IMG/VR virus record: IMGVR_UViG_3300025073_000027
Span: 1 to 64,000 of that record
Reading direction: 5' to 3' (one strand)
Source of the DNA: a virus
DNA length: 64,000 nucleotides
In this document: positions 40,593 through 46,247 of the stretch, one piece after another
Layout: every line of letters starts with the position of its first letter
Numbering within the stretch: the first letter of the stretch is position 1
Notes under the pieces: generated by a model
What the model saw: the letters and a program-made list of their open reading frames with translations, nothing else
Told to the model about the DNA's origin: nothing
Databases searched by the model: none
Made by a program: the position numbers and the translations under genes

Positions 40593-40617
40593 ACTATAAA
40601 AGTTAGATTTTATTAGC

Positions 40618-40822
40618 CTTATCTACCAGGTGTAGAAAAAGATCTGATAACGCAAGTGCGTTTAATGTAATTTAGCTTATGTACCAAGTGTACAAAAAGT
40701 AACAGTACCGTTCAATAGAATGTTACCTGCATTTATATTGCCTCGTTTTGTCTATGGGTATACACGTAGACAACAGACCCACGCATGAGTCTGAGAGTGC
40801 TAGAAAAGGCGTGGCTTTTCTA
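40618..40822 (+). ncRNA. Putative structured RNA with tandem hairpins and a kissing loop
   Basis: About 205 nt without a gene fold into seven local hairpins. H1: CTAC/GTAG at 40623-40635. H2: AACGC/GCGTT at 40649-40662. H3: GTAC/GTAC at 40681-40693. H4: GTAACA/TGTTAC at 40699-40726. H5: TTGTCTATG paired with TAGACAA plus two further pairs, 40748-40773. H6: CAGAC/GTCTG at 40774-40793. H7: TAGAAAAG/CTTTTCTA at 40801-40822. H1 and H3 sit in a repeated module (CTTAT-hairpin-AAAAAG, 40618-40641 and 40676-40699) whose closing pair is swapped from C-G to G-C, a compensatory change. The H6 loop has CCACGC (40779-40784) and the H7 loop is GCGTGG (40809-40814), perfectly complementary. Strand is assumed from neighbouring transcription. 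I do not recognise the class; it is neither a tRNA nor a typical group I intron. Confidence 0.75.
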
Positions 40823-40899
40823 TGCTTATAGATTTATTAATGTATAAAATATTATAAATAATTATAAATTATAAAAATAATGTTTGAAAGGATAATAGT

Positions 40900-41868
40900 T
40901 TGGATCAACGACAATACGAATCACTTTATAAAAGGTGGCTAGAAAGAGATCCTTCAAGTAGATTTTGGACAAATGAAATCGCGGTTGAATATAATATGCC
41001 TTCTAGTGAGGCTACTCGTTCAGCTTTAAGGAGATATCGTAAACTTATAGAAAGTGAAGAAAATATAAATAAAACTTTAATTAATAGCAAAACAAGTGTT
41101 GGAAATGCTCGAATTTTAGTTTTTGATTTAGAACTTGCTCCTCTTGTTTGCTATAGTTTTGGACTTTGGGAAGAAAATATTGGAGTTGATCAAGTTATAT
41201 CTGATAATTTTATTATTTCTTGGTCTGCTAAATTATTAAATAATTCTGAAATAATATCTGATGTTCTTACTTCAAAAGAAGCACTTTCTAAAAATGATTA
41301 TAGAATTACAAAAAGTTTAATGGATTTATTAAATTCTTGTCATATTTTAATTGGTCACAATATACAAAATTATGATATTAAAAAATTAAATGTACGATTG
41401 CTTAAAAATAATCTTCCTCCTTTAACAAAACCTCAAATTATAGATACGTTATTAGTGGCGAGACAAAATTTTTCATTTCCATCTAATTCTCTTAAATATT
41501 TAAGTAAAACGTTGGGTATTAGAACTAAGATAGAGACAGGTGGTTTTGACTTATGGCGTAGGTGTATGGAAGGTGAAGAAGAATCATTAAAATTAATGGA
41601 TGAATATTGTCAAGGTGATATATTGGCAAATGAAGATTTGTATTATCGCATTCGACCATTTGTAAAAGGCCATCCTAATTTGTCATTATATTTTGATACA
41701 AATGAAGAACGCTGTCCAAATTGCGGTAGTGAAGAATTAAAACATGAGGGATTTTATTATACTCCTGCTGGTAAATGGGCTAGTTTACGTTGTGAATGTG
41801 GTGCTGTTAGTCGATCTAAGGTAAATGAACTTAATAAAGATAAGAAAAAAAGTTTAAAAGTTAATTAG
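40900..41868 (+). CDS. DEDD-type 3'-5' exonuclease (RNase H-like) with zinc ribbon
   Basis: 322 residues from a TTG with AAAGGA 7 nt upstream. Exo I is VFDLE (D76, E78), Exo II is GHNIQNYD (D159) and Exo III is YCQGD (Y236, D240), the DEDDy arrangement of DnaQ/YprB-type nucleases. The N-terminal 60 residues look like a helix-turn-helix (SRFWTNEIAVEYNMPSSEATR) and the C-terminus has CPNCG...CECG, a zinc ribbon. There is no polymerase domain. Being directly before the terminase genes, it may serve DNA end processing or packaging; that role is inferred. Confidence 0.85.
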   Translation: MDQRQYESLYKRWLERDPSSRFWTNEIAVEYNMPSSEATRSALRRYRKLIESEENINKTLINSKTSVGNARILVFDLELAPLVCYSFGLWEENIGVDQVISDNFIISWSAKLLNNSEIISDVLTSKEALSKNDYRITKSLMDLLNSCHILIGHNIQNYDIKKLNVRLLKNNLPPLTKPQIIDTLLVARQNFSFPSNSLKYLSKTLGIRTKIETGGFDLWRRCMEGEEESLKLMDEYCQGDILANEDLYYRIRPFVKGHPNLSLYFDTNEERCPNCGSEELKHEGFYYTPAGKWASLRCECGAVSRSKVNELNKDKKKSLKVN

Positions 41869-42896: not shown

Positions 42897-44720
42897 GTGC
42901 CAAGCTATAATAATTTTAGAAATGATTATAAGAGAAGTGTTGAAGGGGCGAATCAATTCAAAAATCCCAAAGTAATGATAAAACAAAGTGACATAAGCGA
43001 AGAACGAAAAAAAAGATTAGTTGATTGGATCACTTTCTATAGGCGCAACGTTCATAGATTTGTGGAACATTATTTTGGTATTAAATTATATCCATATCAA
43101 ATAATATGGTTATATATGATGAGTGTTAGTGATTCGTTTGTAGCTATATGTAGTCGTGCCGTTGGAAAAACATGGCTTCTTGGTGTTATGGCTTGCGCTA
43201 GAGCAGTTTTATATCCTAATTCTGAAATTGTAGTTGTAAGTTCAACTAAAGAACAGGCTGGAATTCTTGTATCAGATAAAATTACCAGTCTTCGTAATGA
43301 TTATCCGAATCTTGCTCGCGAAATATCAAATATAGTTACTAATATGAATAAATGGCAAGTTGATTTTCATAATGGATCAGTGATACGAATTGTGGCTTCA
43401 AGAGATTCAAGTAGAGGTAAAAGGTCTACTTTCACCATTTACGAAGAATTTCGTTTAATTGATAAACTGGTTCTTGATTCGGTGATTAGACCATTTGCTT
43501 ATATTAGGCAAGTTCCATATTTAAAAAAAGAAGAATATAAAAATTATGTCGTATTAATTGAAGAACCGAAAGAGGTTTTTATTTCTTCTGCTTATCATAA
43601 GGGTTTGTGGTGGTTTGAAGAAACCAAGAAGAATATTAAATCGATGATTAAAGGTGAAAATTCTGGTTTTATTGCAATGGATTTTCAAGTTGCTATTCGT
43701 CATCGCATAAAAACGCTTAGACAAATTAAAAATGAAATATCTAAGATGGATGAGATTACTGCCCTTGAGGAATATTATAACATTCCTTGGGGTGAAAGTT
43801 CTGACGCTTATTTTAGATTGAAAATGTTTGAAAGAGCGAGAACAATTAAAAAGGCGTTTTATCCTCAAAGGATGGAAACATATAATCCTAAAAAGAATCC
43901 TTATGGAATTCTTAAGTTGCCGGGGGAATTGAGAGTTGTTACTTGTGATACCGCTCAAAGGGCAGGACGAGCAAACGATTTAAGTATTACTGCTTGTTTA
44001 CGACTTCTTCCCACACATAAGGGATTTTTTCGTGAATTGGTATACATGGAATCATTTTCGGGAGTAGACTCGATAACTCAATCATTGAGAATGAAACAAG
44101 TATATTTTGACTTTGATGCAGATGCTTTAGTTTTAGATGTTGCTGCTGGTGGCGGCGGTCTTCCTATTTATGATCAACTTGGTATTTTAACTAAAGACGC
44201 TGAACGCGGTATTGAATATCCTCCCATGACAATTATTAATCACTCTAGCATAGATAATTCTGAATATGAAGAATTGTTGAAAAGAACTTTGGGTGTAGAT
44301 GCAAAACCAGTTATATATCCGATATCAGCTAACGCTAAATTGAATTCTCTATTGGCAGTAGAAATGAGAGATAAATTACAAAAGAGAATGTTTGGGCTTT
44401 TAGTTGATGAAGTAGTTGCTGAGGATTATTTGATAAGAAATAATAAAGAGTTTATGAAAATTGATGATATAAACGCTAAAAGTTTTTTTACTATGCCCCA
44501 TGTTCAGGTAAGCCTTTTTATAAATGAATGTGTTGGACTTTCGATGTCCATGCTATCGGGCAATCTTCGATTAGTGGAACCTCCTGGTTCAAGAAAAGAT
44601 AGATATGTGGCTATTGCAATGGGGAACTACTATGCATCTTTGTTGGATCAAGAATTGTTAAGAATAAATAGTGATACGACAGATCTTGAGGCATTAATGT
44701 CGGTTACTTTTATAAATTAG
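42897..44720 (+). CDS. terL: Terminase large subunit (ATPase-nuclease)
   Basis: 607 residues from GTG with AGAGG 6 nt upstream. Walker A is CSRAVGKT (85-92, catalytic K91), and the Walker B region is FTIYEEF with E183-E184. The C-terminal RNase H-like nuclease shows VVTCDTA (D351), VLDVAAGGGG (D414) and a later MFGLLVDEVVAED. The protein translocates DNA into the prohead and cuts concatemers. Full length for the family. A terminator-like double hairpin follows. Confidence 0.95.
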   Translation: MPSYNNFRNDYKRSVEGANQFKNPKVMIKQSDISEERKKRLVDWITFYRRNVHRFVEHYFGIKLYPYQIIWLYMMSVSDSFVAICSRAVGKTWLLGVMACARAVLYPNSEIVVVSSTKEQAGILVSDKITSLRNDYPNLAREISNIVTNMNKWQVDFHNGSVIRIVASRDSSRGKRSTFTIYEEFRLIDKLVLDSVIRPFAYIRQVPYLKKEEYKNYVVLIEEPKEVFISSAYHKGLWWFEETKKNIKSMIKGENSGFIAMDFQVAIRHRIKTLRQIKNEISKMDEITALEEYYNIPWGESSDAYFRLKMFERARTIKKAFYPQRMETYNPKKNPYGILKLPGELRVVTCDTAQRAGRANDLSITACLRLLPTHKGFFRELVYMESFSGVDSITQSLRMKQVYFDFDADALVLDVAAGGGGLPIYDQLGILTKDAERGIEYPPMTIINHSSIDNSEYEELLKRTLGVDAKPVIYPISANAKLNSLLAVEMRDKLQKRMFGLLVDEVVAEDYLIRNNKEFMKIDDINAKSFFTMPHVQVSLFINECVGLSMSMLSGNLRLVEPPGSRKDRYVAIAMGNYYASLLDQELLRINSDTTDLEALMSVTFIN

Positions 44721-44873: not shown

Positions 44874-46247
44874 ATGACTAGTGGAATAAGATATACAGAA
44901 GAACAAGTTATTGATATGATTGAAAATTTTGGTTGTAAATTAGAGAGTTCATATTTGGGAGCAAGAAAAGATGTAACAATAATTTGTGTTTGTGGAAGAA
45001 GATTTACAACTAAATTCTATCGGTTTATAGATAAAAATAATACTCATAGATGCTCAACTTGCGCTAAAAAAATTGCTGCCAAAAAATTAAGGAGTGATTT
45101 TGATGAATTAGTTAGAAATTGTGAAAGTATTGGTTATTTTTATATAGAGGGTGAATATACAACTCGAAATTCACAATTGATATTTGAAGATAGTGAAGGA
45201 TATAAATATAGAGTATCTTATGCTTCAATTTATCATATTTTACAAGGTAAAGTGAAACGTTTGGAAATGTTTAGTTATAATAATCCTTTTACTTTTGAAA
45301 ATATGAAAAATTGGTTAAAGATAAATAAAAACGATTTTGAAATATTGGGTGGTCATTATACAACAAGGAATTCGACATTAATTTCTTATTGTAAAATTTG
45401 CTATAATGAATTTAATTCAAGTTGGATTAATTTAAAAAGTAGAAAATTTTGTCCAGAATGTGAAATAATGGCAATGTCAGATAGATTTAGGTTTAGTGTT
45501 GATAAAGTTAATGAAATTTTAAAAAACGCCGGATATTATTTGGTAAATGGAAATTATGAGGGTTGGGATTCTAAAATGAATCTCGTAGATGATTTTGGTT
45601 ATGAATATTTTTCTTCTATAAATTGTATAATCAAAGGTAGGCTTTCTACTTTTGGAAAAGGAAATCCTTATACCGTTAGTAATATTTGTAAATGGATAGA
45701 AATAAACGAAAAAAATTATAAGTATGTAAAAGGTAAATACATTAATGCGAGAAAGAGAAATTTAATTTTTAATTGTAATAAATGTAAAAACGATTGGAAA
45801 ACTTGTTGGAATGCGATTGAAACTGGTAATTCTTGTCCTAGATGTGGAAATTATTCAAAAGGTGAAACTCGAATAGAAAAATTTTTGTTGAATAATAATA
45901 TTTCTTATGAGAGAGAATATTGGTTTCCTGATTGCAGAAGGTTAATACGTAAACCGTTGGAATTTGATTTTGCAATATTTGATAAAAATAAAAAAATTAT
46001 GATGATCTGCGAATATGATGGTGAGTCCCATTTTATGCCTGTGGATTATGCTGGTAGGGGAGAAGAATGGGCTAAAGAGCAATTAGAGTTATCAAAAGTA
46101 AAAGATGAAATCAAAAATAAATATTGTAAAAATAAGGGTTATAGTTTACTTAGAATCCCTTATTGGGATTTTGATAATATTGAAAAAATACTTGAAGAGG
46201 CATTAAAACCAATTCCATGCCTTAACTTTCAAGGAAAGGAGGTTTAA
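44874..46247 (+). CDS. Zinc-ribbon homing endonuclease, EDxHD/Vsr-like
   Basis: 457 residues. The N-terminal two thirds are repeated zinc-ribbon DNA-binding modules (CVCGRR...CSTC, CKIC...CPEC, CNKC...CPRC) alternating with YTTRNSxL repeats. The C-terminal nuclease starts GETRIEKFLLNNNISYEREY (E331) and continues with EFDFAIF, EYDGESHF (380-387, H386), K-x-K-YC and SLLRIPYWDF, the core of Vsr-like/EDxHD phage homing endonucleases. It is inserted between terL and the portal gene, and its last bases form the portal ribosome binding site (overlap TAATG). This is a selfish, free-standing element. Confidence 0.85.
   Translation: MTSGIRYTEEQVIDMIENFGCKLESSYLGARKDVTIICVCGRRFTTKFYRFIDKNNTHRCSTCAKKIAAKKLRSDFDELVRNCESIGYFYIEGEYTTRNSQLIFEDSEGYKYRVSYASIYHILQGKVKRLEMFSYNNPFTFENMKNWLKINKNDFEILGGHYTTRNSTLISYCKICYNEFNSSWINLKSRKFCPECEIMAMSDRFRFSVDKVNEILKNAGYYLVNGNYEGWDSKMNLVDDFGYEYFSSINCIIKGRLSTFGKGNPYTVSNICKWIEINEKNYKYVKGKYINARKRNLIFNCNKCKNDWKTCWNAIETGNSCPRCGNYSKGETRIEKFLLNNNISYEREYWFPDCRRLIRKPLEFDFAIFDKNKKIMMICEYDGESHFMPVDYAGRGEEWAKEQLELSKVKDEIKNKYCKNKGYSLLRIPYWDFDNIEKILEEALKPIPCLNFQGKEV

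What the first reader, a model, noticed from the sequence alone, without database searches (positions are those of the whole stretch)
40618..40822. Structured RNA with kissing loops next to the DNA packaging genes
The 205-nt gene-free stretch has seven hairpins. Adjacent loops of H6 and H7 hold CCACGC (40779-40784) and GCGTGG (40809-40814), an exact 6-bp complement, and the H7 stem is 8 bp perfect. A hairpin module is duplicated (40618-40641 and 40676-40699) with the closing pair changed from C-G to G-C, which keeps pairing. Chance is unlikely to give all of this. It sits just before the exonuclease and terminase genes, so a packaging RNA (like phi29 pRNA, which also uses loop-loop contacts) or a self-assembling RNA of the ROOL/GOLLD sort are ideas worth testing; neither is shown.
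Basis: partly seen in the sequence, partly recalled or inferred. Interest (0 to 1): 0.85.

Follow-up and report, generated by a model that had tools for sequence, protein, structure and literature searches.

The report
Widespread two-hairpin small RNA in phages
The stretch holds two copies of a small two-hairpin RNA that recurs, about one copy per virus, in very different bacteria-infecting viruses (including the laboratory phages P1, SPbeta and K), often tucked between transfer-RNA genes; its job is unknown but can now be tested in standard laboratory strains.

Summary
The duplicated hairpin is real and is the important part; the kissing loops and the packaging-RNA idea are not supported. Window 40618-40641 and 40676-40699 are two members of a conserved RNA family that has no match among the 4,227 Rfam 15 models. 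Its consensus is a hairpin CUN-A-YNNNC-CANGH-GNNNR-AA-NAG (P1), followed about 5 nt later by a sequence-variable hairpin (P2). I collected 110 unique members. Stems covary (24 inner-stem pairings) while the loop C-CANGH-G and the A/AA internal loop are conserved. Copy number is normally one per phage record; the window phage and SPbeta carry two tandem copies 58-59 nt apart. tRNA genes lie within 2 kb in 35 of 99 loci versus 0 of 112 controls, 119 of 120 co-directional. Other members sit in late-gene regions (before terminase, portal or head genes) or at an operon end with P2 as terminator (phage P1). Relatives of the window phage with the same terminase lack it and carry tRNA-Thr or another structured RNA at that site. 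Best reading: a phage small-RNA gene, carried as a cassette and acting in trans on a broadly conserved partner. Existence and structure are well supported; transcription is indirect; function is inferred.

The parts
40618..40641 (+). copy 1, hairpin P1: CUU-A-UCUAC-CAGGU-GUAGA-AA-AAG
   Evidence: model R1 43.2 bits; covariation across the family
40649..40662 (+). copy 1, hairpin P2: AACGC-AAGU-GCGUU
   Evidence: local fold; P2 present in most members
40676..40699 (+). copy 2, hairpin P1: CUU-A-UGUAC-CAAGU-GUACA-AA-AAG
   Evidence: model R1 53.1 bits; start 58 nt after copy 1
40705..40726 (+). copy 2, hairpin P2
   Evidence: local fold
40748..40773 (+). H5, 9-bp hairpin, no homologue found
   Evidence: local fold z -3.2; not part of the conserved family
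40774..40822 (+). H6 (loop with CCACGC 40779-40784) and H7 (loop GCGTGG 40809-40814), possible loop-loop pair
   Evidence: exact complement; no homologues
40900..41868 (+). downstream gene, DNA polymerase exonuclease subunit family
   Evidence: phrog_403, E 2e-81
42897..44720 (+). terminase large subunit, SPbeta-like
   Evidence: phrog_2 E 2e-13; tblastn to SPbeta-group phages at 35% identity

Best explanation
The finding is a phage small-RNA locus with two tandem copies of a conserved two-hairpin RNA of about 55-75 nt. SHOWN: the family exists; P1 has covarying stems with a conserved loop (C-CANGH-G) and internal loop (A/AA); P2 follows at a nearly fixed distance; there is about one copy per phage; it is very rare in sampled bacterial genomes; it lies on the strand of neighbouring tRNAs. 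INFERRED: it is a small-RNA gene carried as a cassette. In tRNA arrays it would be cut out by ordinary tRNA processing, since it exactly fills 56-60 nt gaps between two tRNAs. Elsewhere it would come from a late-operon leader (SPbeta, probably the window) or from an operon 3' end where P2 is the terminator (P1). INFERRED and least certain: the RNA acts in trans, P1 being presented to a partner that most bacteria share (an RNA-binding protein, ribosome or nuclease), as an accessory function of infection such as RNA metabolism or counter-defence.
For: Unselected scans: nearly all hits with loop CAUGU/CAAGU/CACGU that could pair do pair, and every fully paired hit of the loop-free scan has loop CANG[UCA]. 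110 unique members, 24 inner stems; two-sided changes in six of eight pairs. P2 in 86 of 110 versus 18 shuffled. About one copy per record and no reversed-pattern hits. tRNA association 35/99 versus 0/112, same strand 119:1. Exact fit between tRNAs. P1: 3' end with terminator-like P2 and convergent gene. Published transcription of the surrounding units in Kayvirus and SPbeta. Rare in bacterial genomes.
Against: No direct proof of a discrete small RNA. Many members lie just ahead of late genes, which also suits a cis-acting leader. No partner is known. Close relatives of the window phage lack it, so it is not essential to that lineage.
Confidence: 0.55

Rival explanations
1. Cis-acting leader element that modifies the transcribing RNA polymerase (antitermination or anti-pausing), working like HK022 putRNA, for long untranslated or late operons.
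For: Same size and two-stem-loop plan as putRNA; placed ahead of late genes in the window, SPbeta (late-operon start upstream of yonK) and Geobacillus phages (behind RinA), and upstream of the Kayvirus tRNA-Met/lncRNA unit.
Against: In P1 and its relatives it is at an operon end with a terminator-like P2 and a convergent gene; it lies in the middle of tRNA arrays; 20 of 109 downstream genes are on the other strand; no model match in HK022.
Confidence: 0.2
2. RNA-processing or stability element (a cleavage or protection signal in polycistronic tRNA and late transcripts).
For: Fits tightly between tRNAs and occurs near ends of transcripts.
Against: Only one copy even in arrays of 18-26 tRNAs; present where there is no tRNA.
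Confidence: 0.1
3. CRISPR-repeat mimic (RNA anti-CRISPR) against Cas12a.
For: Commonest stem UCUAC/GUAGA resembles the Cas12a repeat stem as I know it; V-A Racrs exist (PMC10651486).
Against: Stem sequence is free to change while the loop CANGH, outer stem and P2 are conserved, the opposite of repeat mimicry. Staphylococcal and other hosts without known Cas12a (own knowledge).
Confidence: 0.04
4. Packaging RNA (phi29 pRNA-like) or self-assembling RNA (ROOL/GOLLD-like) using the H6-H7 loops.
For: Position before the terminase in the window; complementary loops; other members also often precede terminase or portal genes.
Against: Absent from relatives with the same terminase; many members in tRNA arrays; no phi29 match to the model; no pRNA/ROOL/GOLLD match in Rfam; H6-H7 not part of the conserved element.
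Confidence: 0.03

Closest known systems
T4 RNA C and RNA D (rnaC, rnaD; small stable RNAs of the T4 tRNA cluster, roles unknown: PMC3014915, PMC9697503)
   Same: Non-tRNA small RNA genes inside a phage tRNA array, co-directional with the tRNAs
   Different: 119-139 nt; no match of the model in the T4 region, filters off
DUF3800 RNA motifs (Rfam RF03075 DUF3800-VIII, RF02969 DUF3800-I)
   Same: Structured RNAs found in the same loci: DUF3800-VIII about 80 nt from the SPbeta copies, DUF3800-I just below threshold in the phage K lncRNA region; in P1 the gene rlfA two genes away encodes a DUF3800 protein
   Different: Those models match other stretches, not this element
HK022 putRNA
   Same: About 70 nt, two adjacent stem-loops, phage-encoded (PMC9378689)
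   Different: No match in HK022; element also found at an operon end and in mid-array
Racr V-A (Cas12a repeat mimics, PMC10651486)
   Same: Short phage-encoded solitary hairpin; commonest stem resembles the Cas12a repeat stem
   Different: Conserved loop CANGH, outer stem and P2; stem sequence free to change
phi29 pRNA; ROOL and GOLLD RNAs
   Different: No sequence or structure match; far shorter conserved element

Membership tests
Two-hairpin phage RNA family defined here | P1 with 3 + 5 bp stem, A/AA internal loop and C-CANGH-G loop | tested here: met
   window copies 53.1 and 43.2 bits with R1; the window copies are in the training alignment, so this is by construction, but they fit all invariant columns
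Two-hairpin phage RNA family defined here | Second hairpin P2 within about 10 nt | tested here: met
   both copies, local folds
phi29 pRNA | Match to pRNA covariance model | tested here: not met
   Rfam scans of window
phi29 pRNA | Conserved together with its packaging ATPase | tested here: not met
   absent in relatives with the same terminase
ROOL / GOLLD | Match to the Rfam models; long ornate RNA of several hundred nt | tested here: not met
   Rfam scans; non-coding gap is 307 nt
HK022 put | Two-stem-loop RNA of about 70 nt | tested here: met
   P1 + P2 geometry versus description in PMC9378689
HK022 put | Sequence/structure relationship to putL or putR | tested here: not met
   best HK022 match E 0.77 with filters off
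HK022 put | Antitermination through the RNA polymerase zinc-binding domain | not testable with these tools
   needs read-through assay
Racr V-A | Similarity to Cas12a repeat in sequence as well as fold | tested here: not met
   stem varies in 24 ways, loop constant; no repeat collection was searched
T4 RNA C / RNA D | Sequence relationship to rnaC or rnaD | tested here: not met
   best T4-region match E 8.7, in the tRNA genes
Phage small-RNA gene of a tRNA array (T4 RNA C/D kind) | Lies in tRNA arrays, same strand | tested here: met
   35/99 versus 0/112; 119:1 strand; the window itself has no tRNA nearby, but its relatives have tRNA-Thr at the site
Phage small-RNA gene of a tRNA array (T4 RNA C/D kind) | Accumulates as a discrete stable RNA | not testable with these tools
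   only published RNA-seq of surrounding units (PMC9241854, PMC7698491, PMC5467207)
DUF3800 RNA motifs | Match to Rfam DUF3800-I to -XI models | tested here: not met
   models hit neighbouring stretches only

The most novel reading that the evidence does not exclude
A previously unnamed small RNA shared by unrelated phages of many bacterial groups (P1, SPbeta, Kayvirus, Vibrio, Rhizobium, marine and jumbo phages) that binds one universally conserved host machine through its CANGH-capped hairpin: a near-general phage regulatory or counter-defence RNA.
Probability: 0.35. Interest if true: 0.9.

Novelty: new member of a known kind. Interest (0 to 1): 0.72.

Why it matters
Phage tRNA arrays and late leaders carry small RNAs whose roles are unknown (T4 RNA C and D are the classic case). 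This family is present in two of the most tractable temperate laboratory phages, P1 and SPbeta, and in therapeutic Kayviruses, so deletion, complementation and pull-down can be done at once in laboratory strains. A conserved loop on a freely changing stem, across such distant phages, points to one partner that most bacteria share; finding it would be informative whichever partner it is.

Tried and rejected
Rfam scans of the window and of element loci: no family matches the element. Cas12a-repeat mimicry: suggested by the stem, rejected by stem variability and loop conservation. REP-like mobile hairpin: rejected, about one copy per genome. 5'-UTR riboswitch: rejected as a general role because downstream genes differ and 20 of 109 lie on the other strand. 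Packaging RNA: see rivals. Homologues of the kissing pair H6-H7: six chance-like hits without the stems. Homology of the window exonuclease with SPbeta YonJ: none by BLASTP, so the similar order (two elements, exonuclease, terminase) is not simple synteny. The L014 hit is inside a likely coding sequence and was left out of the model. The genome contigs pattern scan gave mostly chance hits. Text search for the commonest exact sequences in open PMC papers: none; the paper cited for the ROOL and DUF3800-type motifs is not held. Y-RNA link: TROVE/Ro60 genes and weak YrlA-like matches lie near some copies, but these look like company in RNA-gene islands rather than a constant partner.

Full report
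WHAT IS THERE. The window is part of a 137,722-base phage record with an SPbeta-like terminase. The stretch 40593-40899 is non-coding in all frames. The striking part is the duplicated hairpin, not the kissing loops.

THE DUPLICATED HAIRPIN IS A CONSERVED FAMILY. The exact 23-nt pattern occurs in five unrelated viral contigs, intergenic as far as inspected, and a relaxed pattern in many more. In hits with loop CAUGU, where three pairs were left free, 50 of 52 form all three; so do 20 of 34 with CAAGU and 15 of 16 with CACGU, whereas loop CTGGU gives none of 8. A scan that fixed only the type-I flanks, the internal loop and the closing C-G pair gave 24 unique hits with all five tested pairs formed, every one with loop CANG[UCA]; hits with few pairs had unrelated loops. 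Stem sequence varies widely: UCUAC/GUAGA, UGUAC/GUACA, UCAAC/GUUGA, UCCGC/GCGGA, UGGUC/GACCA and others, 24 kinds in 110 unique members. On 91 aligned rows six of eight pairs change on both sides (118 two-sided cells against a mean of 31 in shuffles). Those rows were chosen for pairing, so the unselected scans above are the real test. Invariant columns are C6, A9, C14, C15, A16, G18, G20, A25, A26 and G29: loop, internal loop and closing pairs.

SECOND HAIRPIN. P2 usually starts 4-6 nt after P1 and ends about 29 nt after it. It reaches -8 kcal/mol or better in 86 of 110 members versus 18 shuffled and 14 random controls. Its pairs differ between members, with a preferred C-G pair at position +10.

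WHERE IT OCCURS. It is single-copy in nearly all phage records tested, up to 293 kb; the window phage has two copies 58 nt apart, and SPbeta two copies 59 nt apart. A covariance model finds it in 0 of 398, 1 of 398 and 1 of 392 genomes of three bacterial phyla (the last is a locus already known), so it is essentially phage-borne. Named carriers: Kayvirus and other staphylococcal phages (about 270 records matched by a 74-nt probe, a few of them only in the flank), Mammaliicoccus phages, Geobacillus phages, E. coli phages P1 and P7, SPbeta and phi3T, and Vibrio, Rhizobium and Streptococcus phages.

CONTEXT. tRNA genes lie within 2 kb of 35 of 99 members and of 0 of 112 chance-hit controls (p 7e-14); 119 of 120 of those tRNAs are on the same strand. 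In L083 and L068 the element exactly fills the 60- and 56-nt gap between two tRNAs; in L019 it lies inside a permuted-tmRNA match. Outside arrays it often precedes terminase, portal or head genes; upstream neighbours are tail and head genes, without large terminase in the top families. In P1 it lies 99 nt behind pmgF, with a terminator-like P2 and convergent rlfB.

THE WINDOW'S OWN RELATIVES. Loci with homologous terminase, most with the homologous upstream protein and some with the exonuclease, have no element. In L316 and L328 the site upstream of the exonuclease holds tRNA-Thr; in L312/L317 it holds a sigma-70-like promoter sequence and another apparently structured stretch. The site looks like a place for small-RNA genes, which argues against an obligatory packaging role.

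TRANSCRIPTION. Not tested here. Published RNA-seq shows that the tRNA-Met/lncRNA unit of Kayviruses, with the element just upstream of the tRNA, is strongly transcribed (PMC7698491, PMC9241854). The SPbeta late operon is reported to start upstream of yonK and of an unannotated non-coding RNA (PMC5467207), that is in the gap where the two SPbeta copies lie; the exact start was not mapped onto the copies here. In P1, CRISPRi against pmgF leaves plating normal (PMC10695390); if, as I infer, this also silences the downstream element, the element is dispensable in laboratory conditions.

MECHANISM. Best supported is a trans-acting small RNA carried as a cassette. Freedom of position (mid-array, leader, operon end), single copy, and a conserved loop on a freely varying stem fit a ligand for a widely shared partner. 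A put-like cis antiterminator is the main rival, weakened by P1 and by mid-array copies. Function is inferred, not shown.

NOVELTY. The element has no Rfam 15 match, and no open-access paper searched holds its commonest sequences. An earlier description elsewhere cannot be excluded. It is a new family of a known kind: phage structured small RNAs of unknown role, like T4 RNA C/D and the DUF3800 motifs, one of which lies beside the SPbeta copies.

KISSING LOOPS. The H6-H7 complement is exact but outside the conserved element. The best fold does not leave both loops fully open, and no homologue allows a covariation test. It remains an untested local feature.

Noticed in passing
window about 40951-40972; L005, L006: Two metagenome contigs identical in protein sequence to the window phage both end just after the RNA locus, as if assembly breaks at this variable or repeated site.
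   Followed up: no
L312 310-500 and L317 2815-3005: In relatives of the window phage the site upstream of the exonuclease holds a near-perfect sigma-70 promoter (TTGACA...TAAGAT) and a stretch closed by GATATGCAAATG/CATTTGCATTCCC: probably another small RNA.
   Followed up: partly
L316 about 1815-1860, L328 about 615-660: Hairpin AAAGTTCTCTC...GAGAGAACTTT shared ahead of tRNA genes in two relatives; possibly a further RNA element.
   Followed up: no
L019 2741-3046: Phage contig with a permuted tmRNA (Rfam 89.6 bits) whose spacer holds the two-hairpin element.
   Followed up: partly
L018 5818-6183: Weak RNase P RNA-like match (32.6 bits, below threshold) inside a phage tRNA array.
   Followed up: no
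L335 1505-1575 (phage K, minus strand): Unannotated tRNA-like fold between the element and tRNA-Met in Kayviruses.
   Followed up: no
L346 (Rhizobium phage RHph_TM30) 2141-2394 and 3072-4640; L079 6314-8047: TROVE/Ro60 genes near the element; in RHph_TM30 also weak YrlA (Y RNA-like) matches in the same tRNA array.
   Followed up: partly
L343 1910-1975 (SPbeta): DUF3800-VIII RNA (Rfam RF03075, 47.5 bits) next to the two SPbeta copies; a similar-looking sequence precedes the Geobacillus phage copy (L140 2442-2500), not detected by Rfam.
   Followed up: partly
L012 189-254: cow-rumen-4 RNA (Rfam RF02948) in the same tRNA array as the element.
   Followed up: no
window 44874-46247: HNH/homing-endonuclease-like gene directly behind the terminase gene.
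   Followed up: no
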